Below are positions 6,591 to 53,354 of a stretch of 64,000 nt of DNA, one piece after another (the first letter of the stretch is position 1; the number at the start of each line of letters is the position of its first letter). Source of the stretch: Candidatus Hydrogenedentota bacterium (GTDB lineage Bacteria; Hydrogenedentota; Hydrogenedentia; Hydrogenedentales; JAGMZX01); NCBI GenBank assembly GCA_029556545.1, contig JAKQEQ010000038.1, forward strand, positions 1 to 64,000, given 5' to 3'. The notes beneath the pieces were generated by a model. That model was not told the DNA's origin, made no database searches, and was given only the letters and a program-made list of their open reading frames with translations. The translations under genes were made by a program, and so were the position numbers.

Positions 6591-9221
6591 CTACGGAAGA
6601 AGCCCGCGCACGACTTCGGCCGCTTGGGCGATGCATTCGGGCAGCCTGGACACGTCCTTTCCGCCAGCCTGGGCCATGTCGGGCCGACCGCCGCCGCCGC
6701 CGCCCACGATGGGCGCGAGTTCCTTGACGATGTCGCCCGCCTTGATGCGCCCGGTCAGGTCCTTGCTCACGCCGACACACAGCGAGACCTTGTCATCCTG
6801 CGCGGCGGTGAGCACGATCACGCCGCTGCCCAGGCGATCGCGCAAGTTGTCAAGCACCGCGCGCAGCCCCTTCGCGTCTTGTCCCGGCGCCTCCGCCGCA
6901 AGCACCTTCACGCCGTTGATCTCGCGGATCTGGCTCATGTAATCGACTGCGGCGCCGGTGGCCGCGGCCTGTTTCCACTTCTCGACCTCGCGCTGGAGGC
7001 GGCGATTCTCGTCGAGAACGGCACGGACGCGCTCTTCGACCTCGTCCGCGTTGGCGCTGAGCAGCCGGGCGAGGTGGATCAGTTGCCGGTCCCGCGCCTG
7101 GAGCGCATCGACGCAGGGCTCGCCGCACACGGCTTCGATGCGCCGCACGCCGGCGGAGATCGCCGATTCCGCGAGAATCTTGAAGTAGCCGATCACCCCG
7201 GTGCGCGGCACGTGCGTCCCGCCGCAGAGCTCGAGGCTGACATCGCCCACCTCGACAACGCGGACCACGTCCTCGTATTTCTCGCCGAAAAGGGCCATCG
7301 CGCCCGCGGCGCGCGCCTCCTCGAGCCGCCGCTGCGCGGTCTGCACCGGTTCGTCTCTGCGGATGTATTCGTTCACGAGCCGCTCGATATCGAGCAGGCG
7401 GTCCAGGTCGATGCCCTCGAAGTGGGTGAAGTCGAATCGGAGCCGGTCCGGCGCGACAAGCGAGCCCGCCTGGTGGACGTGGTCGCCGAGCACGTTTCGG
7501 AGCGCGGCCTGGAGCAGGTGCGTGGCGGTGTGGTGGTTCATGACGGCGGCGCGGCGCGGCGCATCGACAAAGGCGTCCACCTTGTCGCCCACGCACAGAA
7601 CGCCCCGCAACATGCGGCCTTTGTGCACGGTCATTTTGCCGACAGGCCGCCGGGTCTCGGTAATTTGCGCGTTACCGTTCACCGCGTCGAATACGCCCAC
7701 GTCGCCCACCTGACCGCCGGCCTCGGCATAGAACGGCGTCGCATCGAGGACAAACTCCGCCTCCTGGCCTTCCGAGGCGTGATCGACCCACTCGCCGCCG
7801 ATGATAATCGCCTGGATGGTGGCCTGTCCGCTCACGGCCTCGTAGCCGATGAAACGGGTCTCGCCGACCTCGTCATGCACGTGCCGGTAGACCGGCGCGA
7901 TGGCGTCCTGCCCGCTGCCGGCCCAGGCACTGCGCGCTTTCTCGCGCTGGCGTTCCATGGCGGCCTCGAACCCGGCGCGGTCCAGGGTGTACCCGCGGTC
8001 ATCGGCGATATCCTGCGTCAGATCGAGCGGGAACCCATACGTATCGTAGAGACGGAACAACTCCTCGCCCGGTACGACCTTCGCCCCGTTCCTGTCCATC
8101 TTCTCGAAGACGTCGTCGAGGAGGTCCATGCCGCGAGCGAGCGCGCCCGCGAAGCGATCCTCCTCGATATGGATGATCTTCTCGATTTGGACGCGCCCCT
8201 CGACCAGTTCGGGATACTGCTGCCCCATACGGTCGATGACCGTGTGGCAGACCTGGTGCAGGAACGGCTTCTCGAGCCCGAGTTCGCGCCCGAAGCGCGC
8301 GGCCCGCCGCAACAGTCGCCGCTCGACGTAGCCGCGCCCTTCGTTTGAGGGCAGGATGCCGTCGGCGATCATGAACGAGAGGGCGCGCACGTGGTCCGCA
8401 ATCACGCGAAACGGCACGGGCCGCTCGTCATAGCGCACCTTCGTAAGTGCCTGGGTCGCCTCGATAATCGGGAAGATGCCGTCTGTGTCGAAGACGGTAT
8501 CCTTCTGCTGGAGCAGGGCTGCGAGGCGTTCGAGACCCATGCCCGTGTCGATGCCGCGGTTCTTGAGCGGGGGCCGCGATCCGTCGAGTTGTTGGTCGAA
8601 TTGGGGGAATACGAGGTTCCAGAACTCGAGAAAACGCTCGTTCGGGTCATTTTCGAGGGTGGCGTTCGGGTCGATGGCCGCGCCCCGATCGTAGAGCAGT
8701 TCCGAGCACGGCCCGCACGCGCCGGTGTCGCCCGCGGGGCCCCAGAAATTGTCCTTGGCGCCCAAGCGTGCGATGCGCGATACCGGCACGCCGATTTCCC
8801 GCTCCCAGATGGCGTAGGCCTCGTCGTCTTGCTCGAATACGGACACCCAGATGGCGTCGGCGGGCAATTTCAGGACCTGCGTGCTGTACTCCCACGCCCA
8901 CTGGATGGCCTCGCGCTTGAAGTAGTCGCCGAACGAAAAATTGCCCAGCATCTCGAAAAAGGTGAGGTGACGCGAGGTCTTGCCGACTTCATCCAGGTCG
9001 TTCGCCTTGCCGCCCGCGCGCAGGCACTTCTGCGACGTGGCCGCGCGGCGATACGGGACGGGAACCTCGCCCGAGTAATAGGGCTTGAACTGGACCATGC
9101 CCGCGCTCGTGAACAGTAGCGTCGGATCGTTGCGCGGCACGAGCGTGTCGCTGCGCTCGACCACGTGGCCGCGCTGCCGAAAGAAATCGAGGAAACCTGC
9201 CCTTATGTCGTCGCTTTTCAC
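6591..9221 (-). CDS. alaS: alanine--tRNA ligase
   Basis: Class II synthetase charging tRNA-Ala in the cytoplasm, 876 residues from the chosen GTG start, the typical length of the family. The protein begins VKSDDIRAGFLDFFRQRGH, the usual AlaRS start; a GGGAG ribosome site lies about 9 nt upstream. The frame stays open upstream, but that stretch has no family similarity. Visible are the class II motif region NDPTLLFTSAGMVQFKPYY, the editing-domain zinc site HHTATHLLQAALRNVLGDH with CGGTH further on, and a Gly-rich C-terminal DHHA1-type tail (GGGGGGRPDMAQAGG). It is divergent from the peptidase gene at 9384. Confidence 0.97.
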   Translation of the reverse strand: MKSDDIRAGFLDFFRQRGHVVERSDTLVPRNDPTLLFTSAGMVQFKPYYSGEVPVPYRRAATSQKCLRAGGKANDLDEVGKTSRHLTFFEMLGNFSFGDYFKREAIQWAWEYSTQVLKLPADAIWVSVFEQDDEAYAIWEREIGVPVSRIARLGAKDNFWGPAGDTGACGPCSELLYDRGAAIDPNATLENDPNERFLEFWNLVFPQFDQQLDGSRPPLKNRGIDTGMGLERLAALLQQKDTVFDTDGIFPIIEATQALTKVRYDERPVPFRVIADHVRALSFMIADGILPSNEGRGYVERRLLRRAARFGRELGLEKPFLHQVCHTVIDRMGQQYPELVEGRVQIEKIIHIEEDRFAGALARGMDLLDDVFEKMDRNGAKVVPGEELFRLYDTYGFPLDLTQDIADDRGYTLDRAGFEAAMERQREKARSAWAGSGQDAIAPVYRHVHDEVGETRFIGYEAVSGQATIQAIIIGGEWVDHASEGQEAEFVLDATPFYAEAGGQVGDVGVFDAVNGNAQITETRRPVGKMTVHKGRMLRGVLCVGDKVDAFVDAPRRAAVMNHHTATHLLQAALRNVLGDHVHQAGSLVAPDRLRFDFTHFEGIDLDRLLDIERLVNEYIRRDEPVQTAQRRLEEARAAGAMALFGEKYEDVVRVVEVGDVSLELCGGTHVPRTGVIGYFKILAESAISAGVRRIEAVCGEPCVDALQARDRQLIHLARLLSANADEVEERVRAVLDENRRLQREVEKWKQAAATGAAVDYMSQIREINGVKVLAAEAPGQDAKGLRAVLDNLRDRLGSGVIVLTAAQDDKVSLCVGVSKDLTGRIKAGDIVKELAPIVGGGGGGRPDMAQAGGKDVSRLPECIAQAAEVVRGLLP

Positions 9222-9383
9222 CGTAATCTGCTCCCGCTTCGACTCGAAGAAATGGGGAATACGCCAGTTTATCAAATCTATGCGCATCCGCGCACTTCGC
9301 GAACACTCACGGACGATGGGGGCGTGCATAAGCGGCGCGCGTTCGCTACAATCCTTCGACAACAACGGAAGGACACGCGCTGC

Positions 9384-11189
9384 ATGGCCAAGACGAAACG
9401 CATCCCGGATCGCGGCGAACTGCGCCTGGCGGATACCTGGGACCTCAAGAAGTTGTTCCGCTCGGACGCGGCTTGGGAGAATGGGTATGCCAAACTAGCG
9501 GACATGATCCCCCTGTTCGCGAGGTTTAAGGGGAGGCTCGGGCAGTCGGCGAAGATGTTGCGCGACTGCTGCGATTTTGATGTCGCGTTCAACCGGCTCG
9601 GGGAGAATCTCGGCGTTTACGCCTACCTGAAGTCCACGGAAGACGTGACGGACGACCGCTACCAGGGCATGCTCGCGCGATTCACCTATCTGGCCACGCA
9701 GGCGAGCGAGGCGGCGAGTTTCATCGCGCCCGAGATTCGCGCCATCCCGAGGAAGAAGATGGACGCTTTCCTGAAGCATCCGTTGATCAAGCCCCACCGT
9801 TTTCAATTAGAGAAATTGCTCCGCTACCGCCCGCACATCCTGTCTGAGAAAGAAGAGCGGGTACTGGCGATGCAGGGCGAGGTCGCGGGCACGGCGGGCA
9901 AGGTCTTCGGGCAGTTGAACGACGCGGACCTGAGGTTCGGGTTCGTGACCAACGAGAGGGGCGAGCGGATCGAACTGACACAGGGCACGTTCCGCAGCCT
10001 GCTCGAATCGCCGAAGCGCTCCGTGCGCAAGAAGGCCTTCGGCCTGTTCTACGCCCAGTATGACACACACAAGAACACGCTCGCGGCGACCTTAAGCGGC
10101 GCCGTCCTGCAGGACGTCTATCACGCCCGCGTGCGGAACCATCCTTCCGCGATCGAAGCGGCGCTCTTCGGCGACAAAGTCCCCGCGGCGGTCTATGAGA
10201 GCCTGATCCAGGCGGTGCGCGCGAACCTCGAGACCGTGTACCGGTACCTGGAACTGCGCCGCCGCGTATTGCGCCTCCCCGATATCCACATGTACGACAC
10301 CTATGTACCCCTCGTGCGCGCGGGGAGAACGCGCATGCCCTACGCCAAGGCCGTGGAGCATATCTGCGCCGCGCTGGCGCCGCTCGGCGAGAACTACGTG
10401 AAGACGCTGCGGCAGGGACTCTTGACCGGGCGCTGGGTGGACCGTTACGAGAATCGCAACAAGCGCAGCGGCGCGTTTTCCTACGGGACCTACGATTCGC
10501 CCCCCTACATCATGATGAATTACAAGGATGACGTGCTCGACAGCATGTTCACACTCGCGCACGAGGCCGGCCACTCGATGCACTCGTATTACAGCCGGAA
10601 ACACCAACCCTACCAGGATTCGCATTACAGCATCTTCGTGGCGGAGGTCGCCTCGACGTTCAATGAGCAGTTGCTGAGCGGCCACCTGCTTGAACGCGCG
10701 CGGGAACGGCGCGCCCGGGCGCGCCTGATCAGCCGCGAGATTGACGAGATTCGGGGCACCATCGTGCGCCAGACCATGTTCGCGGAGTACGAGAAGATAC
10801 TCCACGCCGCAGCGGAGGCCGGCGAACCGCTTACGGTCGAGCGCCTGCGCCAGGAGTACGGCAAGTTGCTGCGCGACTACTTCGGGCCGGATTTTGCGCT
10901 CGACCCGGCGCTTGAACTCGAGGGGCTGCGTATCCCCCATTTCTACAGCGCTTTTTATGTCTACAAGTACGCGACGGGCCTCTCCGCCGCAATTGCCCTG
11001 TCCCGGGCCGTGCTCGAAGAGGGAGTGCGGGCGCGCGACCGTTACCTCACGTTTCTCTCGAGCGGCGGCTCAGCCTATCCCCTCGACCAATTGCGGGCGG
11101 CGGGCGTCGACCTGGAGAAGCCGGACGCCGTCGCCGCGGCTATGACGCGTTTCCGCGAACTGGTCGAGGAACTGGAGACCTTGCTATAA
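9384..11189 (+). CDS. pepF: oligoendopeptidase F (M3 family zinc peptidase)
   Basis: A 601-residue cytoplasmic metallopeptidase that cleaves oligopeptides. The start at 9384 follows a GGAAGGA site; the open frame continues upstream into alaS DNA but has no family similarity there. The zinc site is TLAHEAGHSMHSYYS (HEAGH) at about residues 390-404, followed by the downstream glutamate region SIFVAEVASTFNEQLL, and FYVYKYATGLSAAIALS near the C-terminus, all typical of PepF/M3B. No signal peptide is present. Confidence 0.95.
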   Translation: MAKTKRIPDRGELRLADTWDLKKLFRSDAAWENGYAKLADMIPLFARFKGRLGQSAKMLRDCCDFDVAFNRLGENLGVYAYLKSTEDVTDDRYQGMLARFTYLATQASEAASFIAPEIRAIPRKKMDAFLKHPLIKPHRFQLEKLLRYRPHILSEKEERVLAMQGEVAGTAGKVFGQLNDADLRFGFVTNERGERIELTQGTFRSLLESPKRSVRKKAFGLFYAQYDTHKNTLAATLSGAVLQDVYHARVRNHPSAIEAALFGDKVPAAVYESLIQAVRANLETVYRYLELRRRVLRLPDIHMYDTYVPLVRAGRTRMPYAKAVEHICAALAPLGENYVKTLRQGLLTGRWVDRYENRNKRSGAFSYGTYDSPPYIMMNYKDDVLDSMFTLAHEAGHSMHSYYSRKHQPYQDSHYSIFVAEVASTFNEQLLSGHLLERARERRARARLISREIDEIRGTIVRQTMFAEYEKILHAAAEAGEPLTVERLRQEYGKLLRDYFGPDFALDPALELEGLRIPHFYSAFYVYKYATGLSAAIALSRAVLEEGVRARDRYLTFLSSGGSAYPLDQLRAAGVDLEKPDAVAAAMTRFRELVEELETLL

Positions 11190-11254
11190 CGTGGACCGGG
11201 GGAACGGCGCATACGCGGAGCGCGCGTTCCATTTTTCCAGGAAGGAGACCAGAA

Positions 11255-12787
11255 ATGCGCATGATTTGTCTTACCCTGACCCCGCTGGCCTTCACCGCGT
11301 TGGCGGTGAACGCGCAACCGCTTGCGGCGGACTCCTTGGACGCGCTGACGCGCCAACAGGACTACGAGGCGCGGCGCGCCAGCAGTTCGCACGAGGACAT
11401 CACGCGCAACGGCGACGCGCGCGGCATCGACAAGGGCGAGACGCTGGTCCTCATGGAGGAAGAAGGGCCGGGCGTCGTCACGCACATCTGGCACACCATC
11501 GGCTCGTATGACCTGTTTCATGGCCGCTCGCTGGTGTTGCGCGTCTATTACGATGGCAACGAACTCCCGAGCGTCCAGTCGCCCCTCGGCGATTTTTTCG
11601 GGATCGGACATGCCGCGTGGCGCAACCTGACCTCGCTCCCCGTCACGGTAACCTCCCACGGGCGCAGCCGTTCCTGTTACTGGCGCATGCCGTTCCGCGA
11701 TTCCATCAAAATTACCGTGACGAACGACTCCGAGATGCACGACGTGGACTCCTTCTACTATTACGTGGACTGGCAGAAACATGAACGCCTGCCGGAGGAC
11801 ACGGCGTACTTCCACGCCCGCTACCGCCAGGAGTTTCCGGCAAGACCCGGCAATTACACGATCCTCGATACCCGGGGCCGCGGCCACTACGTCGGAACGG
11901 TCTATTCGGCGCATCAGATGGAGTCGGGCTGGTTCGGCGAAGGCGACGATTTCTTCTATATTGACGGGGCGGAAGCACCGCAACTGCGCGGCACGGGCAC
12001 GGAAGACTATTTCAACGACGCCTGGGGCTTCCGCGAGTTCTGCGCGCCCTATTTCGGCGTGCCGATTTACGAGGGCGTCTTGACCGGCGACCGCGTCACG
12101 GCCTATCGCTGGCACATCCCGGACCCGGTACCGTTCAGGGAGTCCCTGCGCGTGGTCATCGAACACCGGGGCAGCGTCTTCAACGATCGCGCCAGCCTCG
12201 CCAATTTCGAACTCGGCAACTTCGAGGAACGCTCGGATTGGCTTAGCTCGGTTGCGTTCTGGTACCAGTACCCCCCGGCGCACGTTGACGAGCCGCTGCC
12301 GCCCGCGGCGGAACGTGTCGCCCCCTATCGCATGATCAAGGGCTCCGACCTGACCTACCGCGCCGACCCGCCGTTCCTGGTCATGGCCATGGACCCGTTC
12401 CTGGCTTACATTCCGGGCGTGGCCGACGCGAAGATCGAATTCGACCTCGAAATCCCGGAGGATGGGCGCTACCAGATCAGCGGCGTATTCCTGTATGGCA
12501 TTCCGTGCGGCGTGTATCAGCCGTACCTCGATGACAAACCCGTCGGCGGCCCGCGCGATTTCGTCATGGGGCAATACGACCCTTATTGGACCTCCCTCGA
12601 TACGCATGATCTCAAGGCTGGCACGCACACGCTCCGTTTCGAGGGAACCGGCAAGCCGTCGCCGAACGCCCGCGTGCTCCTGCCGAACATGAACGGACTG
12701 GGCGTCGCGGCGCTGGTGCTGCTGCGCTTGGACGACATGGAAGGCTATGTGGCGGTTCGCGACCGACTGCTGGAAGAGAAGAAGTAG
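11255..12787 (+). CDS. secreted DUF2961 / GH172-type protein
   Basis: A 510-residue exported protein of the DUF2961 family, now counted as glycoside hydrolase family 172 (members act on alpha-D-fructofuranoside or arabinofuranoside linkages). The start follows AAGGAGACC. Residues 1-25 are a signal peptide ending near NAQPLAA. Typical stretches are GPGVVTHIWHTIGSYDLF, LPFRDSIKITVTND-like MPFRDSIKITVTNDS, and GTGTEDYFNDAWGF, which holds the acidic active-site residues of the family. A beta-sandwich C-terminal part ends in RLDDMEGYVAVRDRL. The substrate cannot be told from sequence. It heads a set of plus-strand sugar genes. Confidence 0.88.
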   Translation: MRMICLTLTPLAFTALAVNAQPLAADSLDALTRQQDYEARRASSSHEDITRNGDARGIDKGETLVLMEEEGPGVVTHIWHTIGSYDLFHGRSLVLRVYYDGNELPSVQSPLGDFFGIGHAAWRNLTSLPVTVTSHGRSRSCYWRMPFRDSIKITVTNDSEMHDVDSFYYYVDWQKHERLPEDTAYFHARYRQEFPARPGNYTILDTRGRGHYVGTVYSAHQMESGWFGEGDDFFYIDGAEAPQLRGTGTEDYFNDAWGFREFCAPYFGVPIYEGVLTGDRVTAYRWHIPDPVPFRESLRVVIEHRGSVFNDRASLANFELGNFEERSDWLSSVAFWYQYPPAHVDEPLPPAAERVAPYRMIKGSDLTYRADPPFLVMAMDPFLAYIPGVADAKIEFDLEIPEDGRYQISGVFLYGIPCGVYQPYLDDKPVGGPRDFVMGQYDPYWTSLDTHDLKAGTHTLRFEGTGKPSPNARVLLPNMNGLGVAALVLLRLDDMEGYVAVRDRLLEEKK

Positions 12788-12880
12788 GCGGCCAGTGGTG
12801 AGCGGTGATGGATCGAGTACGAGTGCGAGTGCGAGGACGAGTACGAAACGGGGCGCCGTGCAACGGTTCGTGTGGTCCAC

Positions 12881-12886
12881 TATAAT
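12881..12886 (+). promoter_or_regulatory. possible -10 element before the sugar isomerase operon
   Basis: A perfect TATAAT stands 38 nt before the ATG of the TIM-barrel gene. No convincing -35 is seen at the right distance. Upstream (12808-12845) is a short GAGTACGAG/GAGTGCGAG direct repeat tract. Confidence 0.35.
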
Positions 12887-12924
12887 AATCGCCGGTTGAA
12901 CCGGGGAGCGGGTGAGGAGAGGCC

Positions 12925-13740
12925 ATGCTGAAGAGCATCAACCAGTGGGTGTTTCCGGCGGGCATGCCGCCGGAGAAGGCGCTGAGCCTGGCGGCGGAGG
13001 CGGGATTCCAGGCTTTCGAGGTGTGCCTGGGCGAGGACGGCCCGACATCGATTACGGCCTCCGAGGAAGACCTCGACGGCCTGCGGCGGCACGCGGACCG
13101 GTTCGGGCTCGAACTGAGCAGCGTCGCCACGGGCCTTGGCTGGCAGTACCCGTTGACCTCCCCGGACCCGCGGGTGCGCGACAAGGGCAAGGAATGCATC
13201 GAGCGCACGGCCCGGGCCGCGCATGTGCTCGGGGCGGACGCGGCGCTCGTCGTGCCGGGCGTGGTCGACGCCGGGACCTCGTATGACGAGGCCATCGAGC
13301 GGGCGATCGACGCCATTCAGGACCTGCTTCCCCTGGCGGAACAACTGCAGGTGTGCCTCGCCATCGAGAACGTCTGGAACAAGTTCCTGCTGAGTCCCGT
13401 CGATATGCGCGATTTCATCGATCAGTTCGAGAGCCCTTGTATCGGGGCCTACGCGGACGTCGGCAACCTGCTGGTCCAGGGCTACCCCGAGCAATGGCTG
13501 CGCATCCTGGGCCGGCGCGTGCGAAAGGTCCACATGAAGGACTTCAAGCTGTCGATCGGCAATATCAACGGCTTTGTCATGCTGCTCGAAGGCGATGTAG
13601 ACTGGCCGGCGGTCATGGCGGCGCTGCGGGCCATCGGGTATCAGGGACCGCTGACCGCCGAGTATGGGCCGTATGCCCACGGAGTCGAGACGACCTTGCG
13701 GCATCTTAGCGCCGCCTTGGACGCGATCCTGGCGCTGTAG
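12925..13740 (+). CDS. sugar phosphate isomerase/epimerase family protein (AP endonuclease 2 fold)
   Basis: A 271-residue TIM-barrel protein of the xylose-isomerase-like superfamily, which includes hydroxypyruvate isomerases, tagatose epimerases and inosose dehydratases. The start follows GTGAGGAGAGGCC. Metal-ligand positions of the superfamily can be read as Glu in LAIENVWN, Asp in AYADVGN, His in KVHMKDFK and Glu in TAEYGPY. It is followed by two Gfo/Idh oxidoreductases, a common pairing in sugar and inositol degradation. The exact substrate is unknown. Confidence 0.88.
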   Translation: MLKSINQWVFPAGMPPEKALSLAAEAGFQAFEVCLGEDGPTSITASEEDLDGLRRHADRFGLELSSVATGLGWQYPLTSPDPRVRDKGKECIERTARAAHVLGADAALVVPGVVDAGTSYDEAIERAIDAIQDLLPLAEQLQVCLAIENVWNKFLLSPVDMRDFIDQFESPCIGAYADVGNLLVQGYPEQWLRILGRRVRKVHMKDFKLSIGNINGFVMLLEGDVDWPAVMAALRAIGYQGPLTAEYGPYAHGVETTLRHLSAALDAILAL

Positions 13741-14935: not shown

Positions 14936-15925
14936 ATGCCGAAAATCGGAATCATGAGTTTCGCCCACATGCACGCCTACAGCTACGGCGCGTGCCTGAA
15001 TGCGTTGCCCGAGGCGGAATTCGTCGCCGTTTGGGACGACAAGCCCCGGCGCGGCAGAGCCGCGGCGCGGCAATTCGGGGCGACCTTCGTCTCGAAACTC
15101 GAGAAATTCCTCGATTTGGACCTCGACGGCGTGATCATCTGTTCGGAAAACGTCAAGCACCGCGAAATGACCACGTTGGCGGCGCAGGCGGGCAAGTGGG
15201 TCCTTTGCGAGAAACCGCTGGCCACCAACGTGGCTGACGCGCACGCCATGATCAAGGCGTGCGAAAAGGCCAAGGTCGGCCTGGGCACGGCGTTCCCCTG
15301 CCGCTTCGCCGCTCCCCTGCGCGTCGCGCGGGATCGCATCGTTTCGGGCGAGTTCGGCGCGGTCTATGCCGCCGCCTGCACCAACAACGGTTCGAACCCC
15401 GGCGGCTGGTTCGCCGAGGACATGTTGTCGGGCGGCGGCGCCACCATGGATCACACGGTCCACGTGGTGGACGTGCTGCGCTGGATCACCGGCAAGGAGT
15501 TCCGCAAGGTGTACTGCGAGGCCGGGAACGTGCTCCACCGGGACACCCTCGAGACGGACGACGTGGGGCTGCTTCAGCTCGAGATGGAGGGCGGCGCGCA
15601 GGTTTCGCACGTGGCGAGTTGGAGCCGGCCCAAGAGTTTCCCGACCTGGGGCGACGTGACCATCGAGTTCATCTGCGAGAAGGGCGTGCTGAACGTGGAC
15701 GCCTTCAATCAGCGGGTGGACGTATACAGCGACGCCGCCATGAAGGCGGAATGGGTATCCTGGGGCGGAAACCCGGACTTGGGCCTCGTGCGGGACTTCG
15801 TCCGGGCCATCATGGAGAAACGGCCACCCTGCGCCACGGGACTGGATGGACTCCGCGCGACGGAAGTCACCGTTGCCGCCTACGAATCGCTGAAATCGGG
15901 CAACGTGGTCAAGATTCGGGCGTGA
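14936..15925 (+). CDS. Gfo/Idh/MocA family oxidoreductase (second copy)
   Basis: A 329-residue paralogue-type member of the same family, clearly divergent from its neighbour. ATG at 14936 follows GAGGAGACT; an in-frame TTG 30 nt upstream is less likely. The nucleotide-binding start is atypical: KIGIMSFAHMHAYSYG replaces the usual GxGxxG loop, a feature of a subset of the family. The CEKPLATN motif and GGGATMDHTVHVVDVLRWITG in the substrate domain are intact. It probably acts on a sugar or cyclitol intermediate together with 13853-14830. Confidence 0.9.
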   Translation: MPKIGIMSFAHMHAYSYGACLNALPEAEFVAVWDDKPRRGRAAARQFGATFVSKLEKFLDLDLDGVIICSENVKHREMTTLAAQAGKWVLCEKPLATNVADAHAMIKACEKAKVGLGTAFPCRFAAPLRVARDRIVSGEFGAVYAAACTNNGSNPGGWFAEDMLSGGGATMDHTVHVVDVLRWITGKEFRKVYCEAGNVLHRDTLETDDVGLLQLEMEGGAQVSHVASWSRPKSFPTWGDVTIEFICEKGVLNVDAFNQRVDVYSDAAMKAEWVSWGGNPDLGLVRDFVRAIMEKRPPCATGLDGLRATEVTVAAYESLKSGNVVKIRA

Positions 15926-16058
15926 TTAACGCCCGATCAGGCGCGTGCGTCTCGATACCCTCAAGCCCAACCGGAGCTTTAGATACACTCCAGGCCGCTT
16001 GGCGCACGTCACGCGCGGGCTCTACGGCCAAGTCCCACGGAATGAGGAACAACGAGTG

Positions 16059-17852
16059 ATGGTTTCTCCGCCATTGGCCAAGGACGACGATGCCGTGCCT
16101 TCACGTTGGGCACATTGGGTACAGGGCCGACGGGGCTACGCGCTGGTAGTCGCATTGGGGACGCTATTGGCGCTGCCAACACTCGCCACCGGATTCTTCC
16201 TCGACGACTACGCGCACTTGATGGCGATAGACGGGCGCAATCCCGTTGCCGGACCATGGAACCTGTACGTGTTCGCGCCGGGCGACGCCGCGGAAACAAC
16301 GCGCCTCATAGACGAAGGCCCGTTTCCCTGGTTCACCGACCCGAACCTCCGGGTCGAGTTCTTTCGTCCGTTGGCATCGGCGACGATGCGTCTGGACCGC
16401 GCGCTTTTCGGCGACGCGGCATGGGCCTATCACCTGCATTGTGTGCTGTGGCGTGTGGCGCTGCTCTTGGCGGTGGGCGGCGTTGTTCGTCGGGTGCTGC
16501 CGGGCGGTCTGGGTCTGCTGACGTTCCTGCTCTTCACGGTGGACGAAGCGCATTGGTTTACGGCGTTGTGGTGGTCGCACAGACACACGTATGTCGCGGC
16601 CACGTTCGGGTTCGCGGGACTGCTGGCGCATCTGCACTGGCGTGACACCGGCTGGCGGCCCGGTCGGGCGCTCGCCCTGCTCGGCATAACCCTTGGCCTG
16701 CTCAGCGGCGAAATCGCCCTGACCATTCTTGGCTACTTCTGCGCCTATGAACTGTGCGCCGGGACGGGTCGCCCCCGGGATCGGATGCGCGCAATCGCGC
16801 CATTGCTCCTCTTGGGCGCAGTGTACGTGGTCGGCTACACGGGAAGCGGTTTTGGCGCGCGCGCCGGGGACTGCTACGTCAGCCCTATCGCGACCCCGCT
16901 GGCGTTCTTGGCGAAGGTTCCCGAGCGTTTCCTTATTCTGGCGGCCACGCAGTTCTTCTCGTGGCCCGCGGAACTCGCGGCGTTCGCGCGCGCCGCCGTG
17001 CTGCCCTCGGCCGCGGTGGGCGCGATTGCGCTGGGACTGGTCGCGCGCGCGTTACGGCGCATCTGGCCACACATCGAGCCAGCCGAGCGCAAAGGGGTCG
17101 CGTGGCTGGCGCTCGGAGGCTTGCTCGCCCTGCCGCCGTTTCTGTCGCCGTTCACCTCCGGGCGTCTACTGCTGGTGTCGTCGCTGGGCGGCGCGGCGGT
17201 CATCGCGGTCATCGCGCGCGCGGCGTGGCGTCAACGACGCTTCCGCTCGCTCGGCGGAGCCTTTATCGCGCTGCATGTGATGGGCGCGGCCCTGGCGTGG
17301 CTGGCGCTTTCGCCGGGCTTTGCGCTTGTAAACCGACACTTCGAGCAGGCCGCCGAAAACGCTCCTTTGGACGATACGCTGATCGCGGACCAGCAGGTCA
17401 TGGTGATCAATCCGCAGGACCCCGTGCTTGCGATCTATACCCTGGCCATGCGCATTCACAAAGGCCACCCGGAACCAGCCGCATGGCGGCCCCTGTCGCT
17501 GGCCCCGCACGACCACGCGATCACACGCACGGCGGCCAACACGTTCAACCTCGAGGTGCTGGACGGTGAAATGCTCGCGACCTTGGCCGAGTCCATCGCA
17601 CGCGGCGCGGACAATCCCCTCACGGTCGGCGAAACCCTGCGCTTCGAGGACTTCGAGGTTGCCATTCTCGAGAAAGGCGCGCGCGGCCCAAAGAAGGTGG
17701 CATTCCGCTTCCGCGCGCCCCTCGAAGACCCGCGCTATGTCTGGCTCGCGTGGGAAAACGGCCTGTTGCGGCGATTTGAACTCCCCGCCGTCGGCGAGAC
17801 GCGGATACTACGCCGCACCCTGCACGTCGCCGCGTTGCTCGGCGGGGCGTGA
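16059..17852 (+). CDS. polytopic membrane protein, GT-C glycosyltransferase-like
   Basis: About 597 residues with roughly ten to twelve hydrophobic segments. After the first helix (YALVVALGTLLALPTLATG) comes FFLDDYAHL, an acidic pair in the first outer loop as in GT-C enzymes of the PMT/ArnT kind that use polyprenyl-phosphate sugars. No close family is recognised; the acceptor is unknown. The ATG at 16059 is preferred over one 114 nt upstream because GAGGAACAACGA precedes it and the upstream part looks unlike coding sequence. It is the last gene of the plus-strand sugar block. Confidence 0.65.
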   Translation: MVSPPLAKDDDAVPSRWAHWVQGRRGYALVVALGTLLALPTLATGFFLDDYAHLMAIDGRNPVAGPWNLYVFAPGDAAETTRLIDEGPFPWFTDPNLRVEFFRPLASATMRLDRALFGDAAWAYHLHCVLWRVALLLAVGGVVRRVLPGGLGLLTFLLFTVDEAHWFTALWWSHRHTYVAATFGFAGLLAHLHWRDTGWRPGRALALLGITLGLLSGEIALTILGYFCAYELCAGTGRPRDRMRAIAPLLLLGAVYVVGYTGSGFGARAGDCYVSPIATPLAFLAKVPERFLILAATQFFSWPAELAAFARAAVLPSAAVGAIALGLVARALRRIWPHIEPAERKGVAWLALGGLLALPPFLSPFTSGRLLLVSSLGGAAVIAVIARAAWRQRRFRSLGGAFIALHVMGAALAWLALSPGFALVNRHFEQAAENAPLDDTLIADQQVMVINPQDPVLAIYTLAMRIHKGHPEPAAWRPLSLAPHDHAITRTAANTFNLEVLDGEMLATLAESIARGADNPLTVGETLRFEDFEVAILEKGARGPKKVAFRFRAPLEDPRYVWLAWENGLLRRFELPAVGETRILRRTLHVAALLGGA

Positions 17853-17966: not shown

Positions 17967-18062
17967 ACCTTCAGCGAAGCTTCGGCACCCTCCGGATTGC
18001 GAATAGGAGAGTGTTGACCCTTGGCACGGGGCCACCTAATGGGTGTCCCCGACAGTCGCAGG

Positions 18063-18332
18063 TCAGAGCGAGTTTAGAAGCCTCTCATATTCCCCATGCT
18101 TGCCTATCCAGAACCACACTATCATATCACCTTCGAGAATCCCTACGGCCCGGTAGTTCAGGGACACACGTATTGAATAGGCGGCGCTCTTCGCGCTGAC
18201 CTGTTTGAACCGCAGGCCGGGATGACTCGGGTCTTTCGTGAAGCGCTTGAACGCGTTCACGGCCTGCTTCTTCACCCCCGGCGGAAGGGCGGCGCACAGT
18301 TCTCGAAAGCGCCGCGTGGTATGCGAATTCAT
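18063..18332 (-). CDS. RelE/ParE-type toxin
   Basis: An 89-residue basic protein with the RelE/ParE fold pattern: helical N-terminus with basic residues (MNSHTTRRFRELCAAL), then RFKQVSAKSAAYSIRVSLNYRAVG and a hydrophobic strand MIVWFWIGKHGEYERLL. Related toxins are mRNA interferases or gyrase poisons; which one cannot be told. Its ATG overlaps the stop of the upstream small gene by ATGA, the classic antitoxin-toxin coupling. Confidence 0.8.
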   Translation of the reverse strand: MNSHTTRRFRELCAALPPGVKKQAVNAFKRFTKDPSHPGLRFKQVSAKSAAYSIRVSLNYRAVGILEGDMIVWFWIGKHGEYERLLNSL

Positions 18333-18547
18333 AGGGCGTCCGGGTTCAGCGGCAACGTATCTCCATCCCGGTATTCCGCGCGGGCTTCGCGCGCCATCTC
18401 AGCCAGAAGTCCCTCCGATTCCTCAAAGAGTTGCCGCCACCGTTCCTCCGAGGCCACATCCTCGAGAAGCCATCGTCCCAGCGCGTCCTGTTCCGCCTCC
18501 GGCAGAGATTCCGCTTTCTCGAATGCTTGTCGCAAAAGATGCGTCAT
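18329..18547 (-). CDS. antitoxin of the RelE/ParE-type pair
   Basis: A 72-residue acidic helical protein (core LPEAEQDALGRWLLEDVASEERW, C-terminus LPLNPDAL) of a type common beside RelE/ParE toxins. No DNA-binding fold is obvious, so the assignment rests mainly on the four-base overlap with the toxin and the typical C-terminal pattern. The start at 18547 follows AAGGAAACGGCG; two in-frame ATGs lie up to 18 nt upstream. Confidence 0.75.
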   Translation of the reverse strand: MTHLLRQAFEKAESLPEAEQDALGRWLLEDVASEERWRQLFEESEGLLAEMAREARAEYRDGDTLPLNPDAL

Positions 18548-18673
18548 CGCCGTTTCCTTCATCATGCAGCATATCCGCGCTCACTTTAACATGGGGTATC
18601 CAACTGGGACAAGCCGCGTCCCGAGACAACTTTGTGCAAAGCGCGATTATCACGATTCCTTGTTGTCCTCTGA

Positions 18674-19093
18674 TCAGCGCTGATTCCAGTTACGGAAGTC
18701 GGCGTCCATTCTCCGTCGCTCGGCTTCCGTTGTCGCAGCGTAATGGCAGGTATGACAGTGAAACAAATCGCCGTTTCCGGCCATTCGCATCAGCTTTCGG
18801 TGATTGTCCCAACAAGGAACGCAGTAAGGTCCCTCGCCAGAGCTTCGCCAGTACATATTGTCCCGAAACGCCAAGTCCTCCTGGATCTCCCATTTCTTTT
18901 CCAGATTGGCCACCTGTTCTCGCAGGCGCAAGTTCTCCTGCTCAAGATTCACCGCGTCAGCTTGAAGATCAACAATTCTCTTATAGAGATCGATGTTACC
19001 GATCTGCTGAACAAGCGTTACAATTTCTCTGATGTTGTCGACTAGAGGCACGGTCAACTCTCCCAAAGTGCCGGTCATTGCTACGAAAGGCAT
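18674..19093 (-). CDS. coiled-coil zinc-ribbon protein of unknown function
   Basis: A 139-residue protein with three parts. The N-terminus is a predicted helix (LGELTVPLVDNIREIVTLV). The middle is a leucine-rich coiled coil (about 45-75, LQADAVNLEQENLRLREQVA). The C-terminus is a zinc ribbon with CVPC and CHTC pairs (about 94-121). The segment DNMYWRSSGEGPYCVPCWD resembles a widely scattered hypothetical family seen in prophages and islands; its role is not known. A ribosome site is weak for this ATG; a second in-frame ATG lies 15 nt on. It belongs to the minus-strand cassette started at 19732-19760. Confidence 0.75.
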   Translation of the reverse strand: MPFVAMTGTLGELTVPLVDNIREIVTLVQQIGNIDLYKRIVDLQADAVNLEQENLRLREQVANLEKKWEIQEDLAFRDNMYWRSSGEGPYCVPCWDNHRKLMRMAGNGDLFHCHTCHYAATTEAERRRMDADFRNWNQR

Positions 19094-19198
19094 GCTCTGA
19101 AGTCGGCCTGATGGCTTGTAACAAGGTGTCGCATTTCGCGACCAATCGTGACCTTGCTTTCTCTGGAATCACGCACATCCCCTGGGTACTTATCAGCG

Positions 19199-19336
19199 CT
19201 ACCCCTCAGGACCAACAAAAAGCCCCATGATTATGTAAATTGGTGCTATAAGCCAAGTGAACAGGCTTAATATGAGATATAGTATTGGGTTTTGGGCTAT
19301 TGTGTAAGCCATCCAACTATATTTTGTGTCACTCAT
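19199..19336 (-). CDS. small membrane protein, 45 residues
   Basis: A gene below usual length cut-offs. ATG at 19336 is preceded by GGGGAAAAGGCG. The product begins MSDTKYSWMAYTIAQNP and continues into one hydrophobic helix of about 22 residues (ILYLILSLFTWLIAPIYIIM), ending FVGPEG. No family is recognised. It is the same length as the small protein at 19450-19587 and follows it in the same direction. Confidence 0.6.
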   Translation of the reverse strand: MSDTKYSWMAYTIAQNPILYLILSLFTWLIAPIYIIMGLFVGPEG

Positions 19337-19367
19337 CGCCTTTTCCCCTGGATACACAAATCACTCC

Positions 19368-19484
19368 CTACCACACCATGATAAACTGCCATATCACGAT
19401 CACCACGAACAACGCGCACGCAACGAGTTTACAACCAGATAGGCCTTTTTCAGTTGAAATCGAAGGTAATTCCCAGAGCCGCAA
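19368..19484 (-). CDS. possible overlapping small membrane protein, 38 residues
   Basis: A reading frame from TTG at 19484 overlaps the end of the preceding small gene in another frame and ends at TAG 19370. Its C-terminal half is strongly hydrophobic (CKLVACALFVVIVIWQFIMVW). The ribosome site is poor, so it may be chance; its place between two small membrane-protein genes is the reason to list it. Confidence 0.3.
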   Translation of the reverse strand: MRLWELPSISTEKGLSGCKLVACALFVVIVIWQFIMVW

Positions 19485-19587
19485 GCAAGATCCATAGAGG
19501 GGTCAACAAAGCACTGAGAACCATCTTGACAGCCCATAGGAAGAAACTGTCATCGTATACTACAAATACATGCTGTTGCTTATCCAT
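19450..19587 (-). CDS. small membrane protein, 45 residues
   Basis: ATG at 19587 is preceded by AAAGGAGG, a near-perfect ribosome site, 11 nt upstream. The product begins MDKQQHVFVVYDDSFFLWAV and has a hydrophobic helix (MVLSALLTPLWILLAALGI) ending TFDFN. One transmembrane segment, no recognised family. It is the first clear gene behind the promoter at 19732-19760. Between promoter and gene a 24-codon frame from TTG (MSLFILWARYCG...) could be a leader peptide, but its spacing to GGAGG is short. Confidence 0.65.
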   Translation of the reverse strand: MDKQQHVFVVYDDSFFLWAVKMVLSALLTPLWILLAALGITFDFN

Positions 19588-19731
19588 TGCCTCTAAATCC
19601 TCCTTTTACCGCTTCGCGCGATCAAACACCCCGAGGATCAACTGGAGCTCTCCAGCCACTTCGCCGGACGAGGAAGCCCGCAGTAACGCGCCCACAGGAT
19701 GAACAGGCTCAACTTCCTCCGCTGTAAAATT

Positions 19732-19760
19732 CTTATAGCATGTCCGCTCGGAGAAGTCAA
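19732..19760 (-). promoter_or_regulatory. strong sigma70-type promoter for the small-protein cassette
   Basis: On the minus strand TTGACT (19755-19760), 17 nt spacer, TATAAG (19732-19737) with an upstream TGC, i.e. extended -10. It starts just beyond the stop of the PqaA-like gene and reads toward the small membrane-protein genes. Confidence 0.75.
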
Positions 19761-19777: not shown

Positions 19778-21253
19778 CTACGCGGCGGAAGCGTCTGCTC
19801 TGTCCCCATTTTTTAGAAATCCTTTCGGCGGATTCTCCGGCGTCACGTAGGTGTATGGCGTGGTTTCGGGTACGACGCGCACGGGCGTCGTGAACACGTG
19901 GGAGAAGCCGTCCGCCGCGCTGAACGTCAGCTCGACCATGTAGGCGGTCCAGCCTTTCTCCGGCGTCTCGACGTGACCGACGTACACACCCGGTTCGGCG
20001 GGCGCAAGTTCCGCGCCGCTCCAGACGGCGCCGACCTTGTAGGTGCGATATTCGCGCGCTTCGGGATTGGTCGCCCACCAGAGCTTGACCGACACGGGCT
20101 TGTCGCGGGTCTCGGCGCGAACCGTATTGGCGTCGGGAAAACTCCAGGCGTACTCGGGCAACCGCGCGCCGGAGATGACGGCCTGATGGAAGGCCAGCAG
20201 GCCGAGGGGCGCGTCGCTCGGCATCAGGGCATGGCCCACGTTCGGTACGTACCGCAAATACGTGGGACCCTTCAGGTCGTCGATATAGAACAACGACGAA
20301 TCAGGCAGAAAGAACTCATCCTGCGTGCCGTTCATGATCAACTTCGGCATGGTCAGGCGGTCGCGGTACTCGTAAGGCTCGACGAGTCTCATGAGGGCCG
20401 CGAATTCCGGCGTATCGAGCCACTCCATGATTCGCATCTCGACATAGTCGTCGATGGCGGGCGCCCACTCGCCGTAAGCGGCCCAATGATGCCGGAACGA
20501 CGGCACGAGGTTGAGCAGATCGATTACGGCGGGCGCGATGGCCACGACGCGCTTGTCCACAACGGCGGTGGTCCAAGTCGTCCAGCCGCGCTTCGATCCG
20601 CCCGCGACGACAAAACCCGCGATGTTGATGCTGCCGCGCTCGGGATCCGCGCAGAACGCCTGGATAACGTCCATTGCGCGCACGGCGCTCTTGGTCATGG
20701 GCAGACGCAGCGGCCACGTCTCATCGCCGGTAAGCATGTACTTTTCCCATGTATAGGCGATGGTGGCATCCTCCGAGCGGGAGCGCGTTTCGTCGGCGAA
20801 TCGGAGCGGCTGACTCGGCACCTGGTTCAGCGCGGCGGCCACCGACCGGGTCTGGCGCGCAATCTGCACGACCATCGGGTCCGGCGCCTTCGGCGGGTCC
20901 GCGCCGTTTCTGCCGCCGCTGATATACAGCAGCGCGGAGTTATGGGCGACCTCGCGCGGCATGATAATGGTCAGCCAGTGTTTCCAGACCGGGCGGTCCA
21001 CCTCCTCGGGAGTGCGCCACGCCTGCGAGGTCAACTCGATGATGTAAGCGGTCCATTCCGTCGTCTCCCGGGTGTCGACGAGGCGATACGCGAAATGTGG
21101 GTCGGGCGCATACACGTAGCGGTCCAGGGCCGTCGGCGCTAGCGTTTCCCGGGCCGTCGAGGCGGCGGGCGGCTGTGCGACCACGACGGACGGCAGGACG
21201 AAGAAGGCAAGAACAAGTAACGTGGTACACAGAAGACGCGAGCGCAAGTGCAT
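19778..21253 (-). CDS. PhoPQ-activated pathogenicity-related (PqaA-like) exported protein
   Basis: A 491-residue alpha/beta-hydrolase-like protein of the PhoPQ-regulated PqaA family, function poorly known in any organism. The start at 21253 follows GAGGAGTTCGTC and begins a signal peptide (LLCTTLLVLAFFVLPSVVVAQ). The family core includes NIAGFVVAGGSKRGWTTW (nucleophile-elbow-like GGSKRG), KLIMNGTQDEFFLPD and VPNVGHALM, i.e. a Ser-Asp-His arrangement. Homologues occur in several copies in Planctomycetes-like genomes. Confidence 0.88.
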   Translation of the reverse strand: MHLRSRLLCTTLLVLAFFVLPSVVVAQPPAASTARETLAPTALDRYVYAPDPHFAYRLVDTRETTEWTAYIIELTSQAWRTPEEVDRPVWKHWLTIIMPREVAHNSALLYISGGRNGADPPKAPDPMVVQIARQTRSVAAALNQVPSQPLRFADETRSRSEDATIAYTWEKYMLTGDETWPLRLPMTKSAVRAMDVIQAFCADPERGSINIAGFVVAGGSKRGWTTWTTAVVDKRVVAIAPAVIDLLNLVPSFRHHWAAYGEWAPAIDDYVEMRIMEWLDTPEFAALMRLVEPYEYRDRLTMPKLIMNGTQDEFFLPDSSLFYIDDLKGPTYLRYVPNVGHALMPSDAPLGLLAFHQAVISGARLPEYAWSFPDANTVRAETRDKPVSVKLWWATNPEAREYRTYKVGAVWSGAELAPAEPGVYVGHVETPEKGWTAYMVELTFSAADGFSHVFTTPVRVVPETTPYTYVTPENPPKGFLKNGDRADASAA

Positions 21254-52894: not shown

Positions 52895-52994
52895 TCGCAA
52901 CCTGCGGGCCGCGAATCGGGGAAGGAAGTAAAGAACTGCTCGCGCACCCACCCTCGAACGCTTGCCCAGAACGGTGTGCGGCGTCGCCGGCTCG

Positions 52995-53092
52995 GGCCAG
53001 GCGCTCCTACAGCACACGAACCAATCCGACTACGGCTGCTTCCGTCAGGACCTGACCGGGTTTGCCGGCGGCCCGTTGAGTAGGACCCAGCC
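52995..53092 (-). ncRNA. ffs: signal recognition particle RNA, small (4.5S) type
   Basis: The minus strand has the SRP core GGUCAGGUCC...GGAAGCAGCC (53035-53059 region) with the apical loop, symmetric loop and the AGCAG side. The ends pair as GGCUGGGUCCUAC with GUAGGAGCGCCUGGCC around a three-base bulge, giving the expected ~98-nt hairpin without Alu domain. The apical part reads CUGAC instead of CCGGAA, a small variant. It targets nascent membrane proteins with Ffh. A reading frame across it is spurious. Confidence 0.9.
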
Positions 53093-53354
53093 GTCAACGC
53101 CACGTGCGCCGCGCCTATAAAGAGCAAGACGCCCTCAAGTGGGAATTCAACCTCGCTGAAGCGGATTGCGAGTTACAGGACACCGCTAGTTTCCCGTCTA
53201 GCGCGAGCAAAATCGGCGTCGAATTCACACTATTCGGCAACGAGCGACTCTAACAGACGCCCCCGCGGACTGTCAAACGCAACCCGCCCGCGCCATGCCG
53301 TCCCTCTTGCGCCGTGATGCGCACGCCGCGTGTTCGGCGCGCGTCCTGAAACGG
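53093..53354. other. intergenic region between SRP RNA and the acyl-CoA-binding protein gene
   Basis: No gene, repeat or tRNA recognised. A TTTATAGG stretch at 53113-53121 (minus strand) might be the -10 of the SRP RNA promoter. Confidence 0.5.

What the first reader, a model, noticed from the sequence alone, without database searches (positions are those of the whole stretch)
18063..19760. Accessory cassette: two 45-residue membrane proteins, coiled-coil zinc ribbon and toxin-antitoxin pair behind one strong promoter
A TTGACT-17-TATAAG promoter leads into two single-helix proteins of exactly equal length, each with its own ribosome site, then a coiled-coil protein with a CxxC...CxxC ribbon, then a RelE/ParE-type pair, all on one strand. 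Local base composition is visibly more AT-rich than the neighbours. Small membrane proteins plus a sensor-like zinc protein and a toxin pair are the ingredients of many phage-defence or stress modules. This is the best candidate in the window for an undescribed system; co-function is inference.
Basis: partly seen in the sequence, partly recalled or inferred. Interest (0 to 1): 0.6.

Follow-up and report, generated by a model that had tools for sequence, protein, structure and literature searches.

The report
Mosaic island with small membrane proteins
A short AT-rich insert in the genome of a bacterium of the phylum Hydrogenedentota carries five genes, but relatives of those genes turn up separately elsewhere, so it looks like an accessory patchwork bounded by repeats rather than one new defence system.

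Summary
On the minus strand, TTGACT-17-TATAAG (19760-19732) precedes two 45-residue single-helix proteins (19450-19587, 19199-19336), a coiled-coil/zinc-ribbon protein (18674 to about 19051) and an antitoxin/ParE_like toxin pair (18329-18547, 18063-18332). The two small frames are not chance: 0 of 1000 shuffles give two. About 18.5-19.85 kb is the only stretch of the window with 500-base windows below 52% GC.

The reading as one defence or stress module is not supported. In 68 genomes of the phylum the parts are distributed separately. The first small protein belongs to a new family, with stand-alone tandem pairs in two other genomes. The zinc-ribbon protein is a rare orphan, seen behind a type ISP restriction enzyme and on proteobacterial plasmids. 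The toxin pair is common, without these neighbours. No part matches PADLOC. The second small protein has no detectable relative.

Two short repeats bound the cassette. They recur together at one other place in the 6.1 Mb genome, 32 bp apart and without the cassette; synteny with the genus mate stops at one of them. Best reading: an accessory mosaic of independent modules. The new part is a small lineage-specific family of membrane microproteins, possibly toxin-like.

The parts
19732..19760 (-). Promoter-like site TTGACT-17-TATAAG
   Evidence: 10/12 match, 0.01 expected per window for the core pattern; no expression data
19450..19587 (-). smP1, 45-aa single-helix membrane protein (P0001), AGGAGG upstream
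   Evidence: relatives in G005 (tandem pair), G004, G002
19199..19336 (-). smP2, 45-aa single-helix membrane protein (P0002)
   Evidence: no significant relative; reading frame unlikely by chance
18674..19051 (-). Coiled-coil plus C-terminal CxxC/CxxC zinc-ribbon protein (P0003; GTG start at 19051 more likely than ATG at 19093)
   Evidence: relatives in Hydrogenedentota and on plasmids; phrog_1244 E 6e-5
18329..18547 (-). Antitoxin-like gene (P0004; upstream ATG at 18565 also in frame)
   Evidence: relatives sit directly upstream of ParE_like relatives in other genomes of the phylum
18063..18332 (-). ParE_like toxin gene (P0005), overlaps the antitoxin stop
   Evidence: PF24732 36.3 bits
18015..18052 (+). 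Left boundary repeat with hairpin GGGGCCACCTAATGGGTGTCCCC (18028-18050)
   Evidence: the only other copy found is G000:C24:68235-68272
19798..19810 (+). Right boundary repeat CTCTGTCCCCATT
   Evidence: the only other exact copy is G000:C24:68305-68317; synteny with G001 ends at 19821

Best explanation
The segment 18015-19810 is an accessory insert: a mosaic of three independently travelling modules between two short repeats, one of them a REP-like hairpin. Module 1 is the two 45-residue single-span membrane proteins; the first belongs to a lineage-specific family that also occurs as stand-alone tandem pairs, and such proteins most likely act in the inner membrane as toxin-like peptides or small regulators. 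Module 2 is an orphan coiled-coil/zinc-ribbon protein of a family found on mobile elements; most likely it self-associates through the coiled coil and binds nucleic acid or protein through the ribbon. Module 3 is a ParE_like toxin with its antitoxin, acting as an ordinary stabilising (addiction) pair. Shown: the genes, their relatives, their separate distribution, the paired boundary repeats. Inferred: insertion as a unit, all biochemical roles, a common transcript.
For: Separate distribution in 68 genomes of the phylum: P0003 in 3, toxin in 14, an smP1 tandem pair in G005 (E 1.5e-6 and 3e-4) and, by profile, tandem frames in G004 and one frame in G002; none of the fetched relatives carries another part of the cassette. 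Boundary repeats: the 13-mer occurs exactly twice in the 6.1 Mb genome and its second copy lies 32 bp from the second copy of the left repeat. Synteny with genus mate G001 ends at window 19821, and the PhoPQ-related gene gets a different C-terminus there. The composition minimum of the window lies inside the cassette, and the toxin pair differs in composition from the small genes.
Against: A joined empty site was not found: in G001 the left flank (to 15925) and the right flank (from 19821) lie on different contigs, so insertion of the cassette as one unit is not demonstrated. No transposase or integrase gene lies in the insert. Spacing and orientation would allow one transcript, so co-regulation inside this genome is not excluded.
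Confidence: 0.7

Rival explanations
1. One functional module: P0003 senses a stress or phage signal and controls the toxin pair or the membrane proteins, all from one promoter.
For: Same strand, one good promoter at the head. A P0003 relative in G013 sits 36 bp behind a type ISP restriction enzyme, another in L111 follows two membrane protein genes, and some plasmid relatives lie near VapC, MazF or abortive-infection genes.
Against: No co-occurrence of the parts in any other genome searched; no PADLOC match; the toxin pair differs in composition and has a gap of about 126 bp before it; plasmid neighbours of P0003 relatives vary.
Confidence: 0.12
2. The tandem small membrane proteins are type I toxin-like peptides silenced by an antisense RNA, as in DinQ, TisB or the duplicated Zor loci of E. 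coli. (Compatible with the mosaic reading; concerns module 1 only.)
For: Length 44-46 aa, single helix, tandem copies in G005 and G004; a sigma-70-like site on the opposite strand inside smP1, TTGACA-16-TGTCAT at 19526. DinQ and ZorO show that such peptides can be type I toxins, in Zor as a duplicated locus (PMC3567139, PMC3919570).
Against: The antisense site is not seen at the G005 pair and not at the same place in the G004 pair. The 139-nt leader folds no better than shuffles, z 0.26. No Rfam match in the cassette. Toxicity untested.
Confidence: 0.25
3. smP2 is not a gene: an AT-rich spacer frame that happens to look like a membrane protein.
For: No relative in 68 genomes; profile scores not clearly above shuffles (12/500 and 171/500 shuffles score as well).
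Against: 0 of 1000 shuffles of the region give two such frames; same length and position as the second member of the tandem pairs in G005 and G004.
Confidence: 0.15

Closest known systems
ParE/RelE-superfamily type II toxin-antitoxin pairs (PF24732 ParE_like)
   Same: Toxin domain above the curated cut-off; small antitoxin gene directly upstream, overlapping by ATGA; recurring gene pair in the phylum
   Different: Antitoxin matches no Pfam or NCBIfam family above cut-off; no activity data
PHROG 1244 and related plasmid orphan proteins (unknown function)
   Same: Coiled coil followed by the ribbon P[YF]CxxC[WY]...CxxC; all four Cys invariant
   Different: Only 19-40% identity to the relatives compared; no fixed neighbours; weak match to the PHROG profile (E 6e-5)
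Type I toxin peptides DinQ, TisB and the duplicated ZorO/ZorP (E. coli)
   Same: Single-helix membrane peptides under 60 aa, tandem copies
   Different: No sequence relation shown; no conserved antisense RNA signal; leader not unusually structured
REP/BIME sequences linked to RAYT transposases
   Same: Short hairpin repeats; a RAYT-like gene in this genome (L107) is flanked by GGGGACTGGCACAAGCG repeats that also lie beside the second copy of the boundary repeats
   Different: The boundary repeats themselves were found in two places only and lack the GT(A/G)G head described for REPs (PMC2817692)

Membership tests
Type II toxin-antitoxin, ParE_like | Toxin domain of the ParE/RelE superfamily | tested here: met
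   36.3 bits against cut-off 24.4; helix-helix-strands order in a low-confidence model
Type II toxin-antitoxin, ParE_like | Cognate antitoxin gene directly adjacent, conserved as a pair | tested here: met
   antitoxin relatives just upstream of the toxin relatives in L013, L015, L016, L020, L030
Type II toxin-antitoxin, ParE_like | Recognisable antitoxin DNA-binding domain | tested here: inconclusive
   no Pfam or NCBIfam match above cut-off for P0004
Type II toxin-antitoxin, ParE_like | Toxicity neutralised by the antitoxin | not testable with these tools
   needs expression assays
Known anti-phage defence system | Match to PADLOC models | tested here: not met
   none of five proteins at E up to 1
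Type I toxin-antitoxin | Small hydrophobic peptide under 60 aa | tested here: met
Type I toxin-antitoxin | Antisense or base-pairing RNA | tested here: inconclusive
   one antisense promoter-like site, not conserved at related pairs; no Rfam match
Type I toxin-antitoxin | Toxicity on overexpression, relieved by the RNA | not testable with these tools
   needs expression assays
PHROG 1244 | Profile match including the zinc-ribbon cysteines | tested here: met
   (E 6e-5, residues 24-123); invariant C91 C94 C113 C116
REP-bounded unit of RAYT type | REPs with GT(A/G)G head at both ends | tested here: not met
   paired repeats and a hairpin found, classical head sequence absent

The most novel reading that the evidence does not exclude
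The tandem 44-46-residue membrane proteins found in Hydrogenedentota are a new family of membrane-active effectors, in this genome placed under the control of a coiled-coil zinc-ribbon sensor and stabilised by a toxin pair, forming a compact mobile defence or stress cassette.
Probability: 0.07. Interest if true: 0.6.

Novelty: new member of a known kind. Interest (0 to 1): 0.25.

Why it matters
It shows that a tidy row of small genes behind one promoter can be a patchwork. It also points to a small-protein family without a match in Pfam, NCBIfam or PHROGs, whose tandem arrangement in related genomes makes simple tests of translation and toxicity worthwhile.

Tried and rejected
Whole-cassette conservation: not found in 68 genomes of the phylum. 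PADLOC, NCBIfam, Pfam and PDB sequence searches gave nothing convincing for P0001-P0003. Phage records gave no match for P0003 or two of its plasmid relatives; viral contig scans with P0003 or the P0001 family gave no relative. P0001 gave no plasmid match. A common origin of smP1 and smP2 looked plausible by eye but shuffle tests do not support it. A structured leader, as in some type I toxins, was not supported. Models of P0003 (pLDDT 60.6) and P0005 (pLDDT 50.5) were too weak for fold searches. The nine-row P0003 alignment was too diverse for a collection scan.

Full report
What is there. The window lies in a 6.1 Mb draft genome of 195 contigs. Its phylum is the one that contains G013, whose contig is titled Candidatus Hydrogenedentota bacterium. 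TTGAC-17-TATAA is unique in 64 kb, with 0.01 expected. Two frames of exactly 45 codons each encode one strongly hydrophobic helix and carry a Shine-Dalgarno-like motif; 0 of 1000 dinucleotide shuffles of the region give two such frames. The third gene encodes a coiled coil and a CxxC...CxxC ribbon. Its nearest relative begins at the residue equivalent to V15, where GTG 19051 is preceded by GGAGAG, so the protein is probably 125 residues long. The last two genes overlap by ATGA and form a ParE_like (PF24732) toxin-antitoxin pair.

Composition. About 18.5 to 19.85 kb is the only part of the window with 500-base windows below 52% GC. The small-protein genes are the most AT-rich (39-44% GC), P0003 is intermediate (51%) and the toxin pair is closest to host values (57-61%). 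This already suggests different origins.

Relatives of the small proteins. One search of 68 genomes with P0001 found two relatives in G005, 296 bp apart start to start on one strand, both 44 codons long. A profile of these three gave a weak hit in G004 (E 0.05), which turned out to be the first of two adjacent frames of 46 and 44 codons, each with a purine-rich stretch upstream. The first G004 frame and a 51-codon frame in G002 beat all 500 layout-preserving shuffles; the second G004 frame is borderline, 3/500. A wider profile reached six further genomes of family f3 (E 8e-6 to 3e-4); in four of them (G008, G010, G014, G015) the frame reads as a closely similar 51-residue protein with the signature E[ED]KG..GFL.YPW, while G009 and G011 were not resolved. 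That group scores P0001 above all 500 shuffles, but only just (11.3 against at most 10.1 bits), so its kinship with P0001 is likely rather than proven. None of the fetched loci carries P0003 or the toxin pair. P0002 has no significant relative.

Relatives of P0003. A 39% identical relative in G013 lies 36 bp behind a type ISP restriction-modification enzyme (Type_ISP_C E 3e-70, N6_Mtase E 1e-5). There is a weaker one in G041 and one in an unclassified MAG behind two membrane protein genes. Thirty-one plasmid records of Klebsiella, Enterobacter, Burkholderia, Vibrio and others match at an E limit of 1, best 3e-4, with changing neighbours. All four cysteines are invariant, and the family matches phrog_1244, function unknown.

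Relatives of the toxin pair. The toxin has relatives in 14 of 68 genomes, in several with the antitoxin upstream, never with the other parts.

Boundaries. The 38 bases at 18015-18052 have one other copy in the genome, on contig C24. The 13-mer CTCTGTCCCCATT at 19798-19810 also has exactly one other copy, on C24, 32 bp from the first. The two repeats thus sit together on C24 without the cassette, and 1745 bp apart here with it. The left repeat forms a hairpin (z -2.4). Next to the C24 copy lie GGGGACTGGCACAAGCG repeats of the kind that flank a RAYT-like transposase gene elsewhere in this genome. Nucleotide homology with the genus mate G001 ends at 19821, and the last residues of the PhoPQ-related gene are encoded by the repeat and the sequence beyond it. 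I take these facts to mean that the cassette entered between, or together with, these repeats; a joined empty site could not be shown because in G001 the two flanks lie on different contigs.

Function. The most economical account is an accessory mosaic: a stabilising toxin pair, an orphan zinc-ribbon protein and a pair of membrane microproteins. For the microproteins, type I toxin-like action is the best single guess, since single-helix peptides below 60 residues, sometimes in duplicated loci, are typical of that class (PMC3567139, PMC3919570). But an antisense promoter-like site at 19526 is not shared by the related pairs and the leader is not unusually structured. The idea of one defence module keeps a low probability because some P0003 relatives lie near restriction, abortive-infection and toxin genes, which is also simply what mobile DNA carries.

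Verdict. Real genes of ordinary kinds, one small new protein family, no evidence for a joint system. Interest 0.25.

Noticed in passing
window 52940-53206: Bacterial large SRP RNA on the minus strand (183.7 bits).
   Followed up: no
L098 (G001:C48), last 400 bases: A tRNA-like sequence follows the PhoPQ-related gene in the genus mate, where the window has the cassette; a possible insertion hotspot (read by eye, not scanned).
   Followed up: no
L070 (G002:C282) 7708-13275: A 51-residue smP1-like frame lies next to an apparent integrative element with a primase-like gene and a tyrosine-recombinase-like gene (identified by eye).
   Followed up: partly
L074, L076, L077, L079 (G015, G014, G008, G010): Closely similar 51-residue single-helix proteins with signature E[ED]KG..GFL.YPW...LMP[VI]NWFCY...PV.IETPF; in G014 and G015 they share the same neighbours.
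   Followed up: partly
L107 (G000:C101): RAYT-like transposase gene flanked by GGGGACTGGCACAAGCG...GTGCCTGTCCCC repeats.
   Followed up: partly
window 15945-17852: Multi-span membrane protein without any Pfam match; the DNA match to genus mate G001 stops just before it, at 15925.
   Followed up: no
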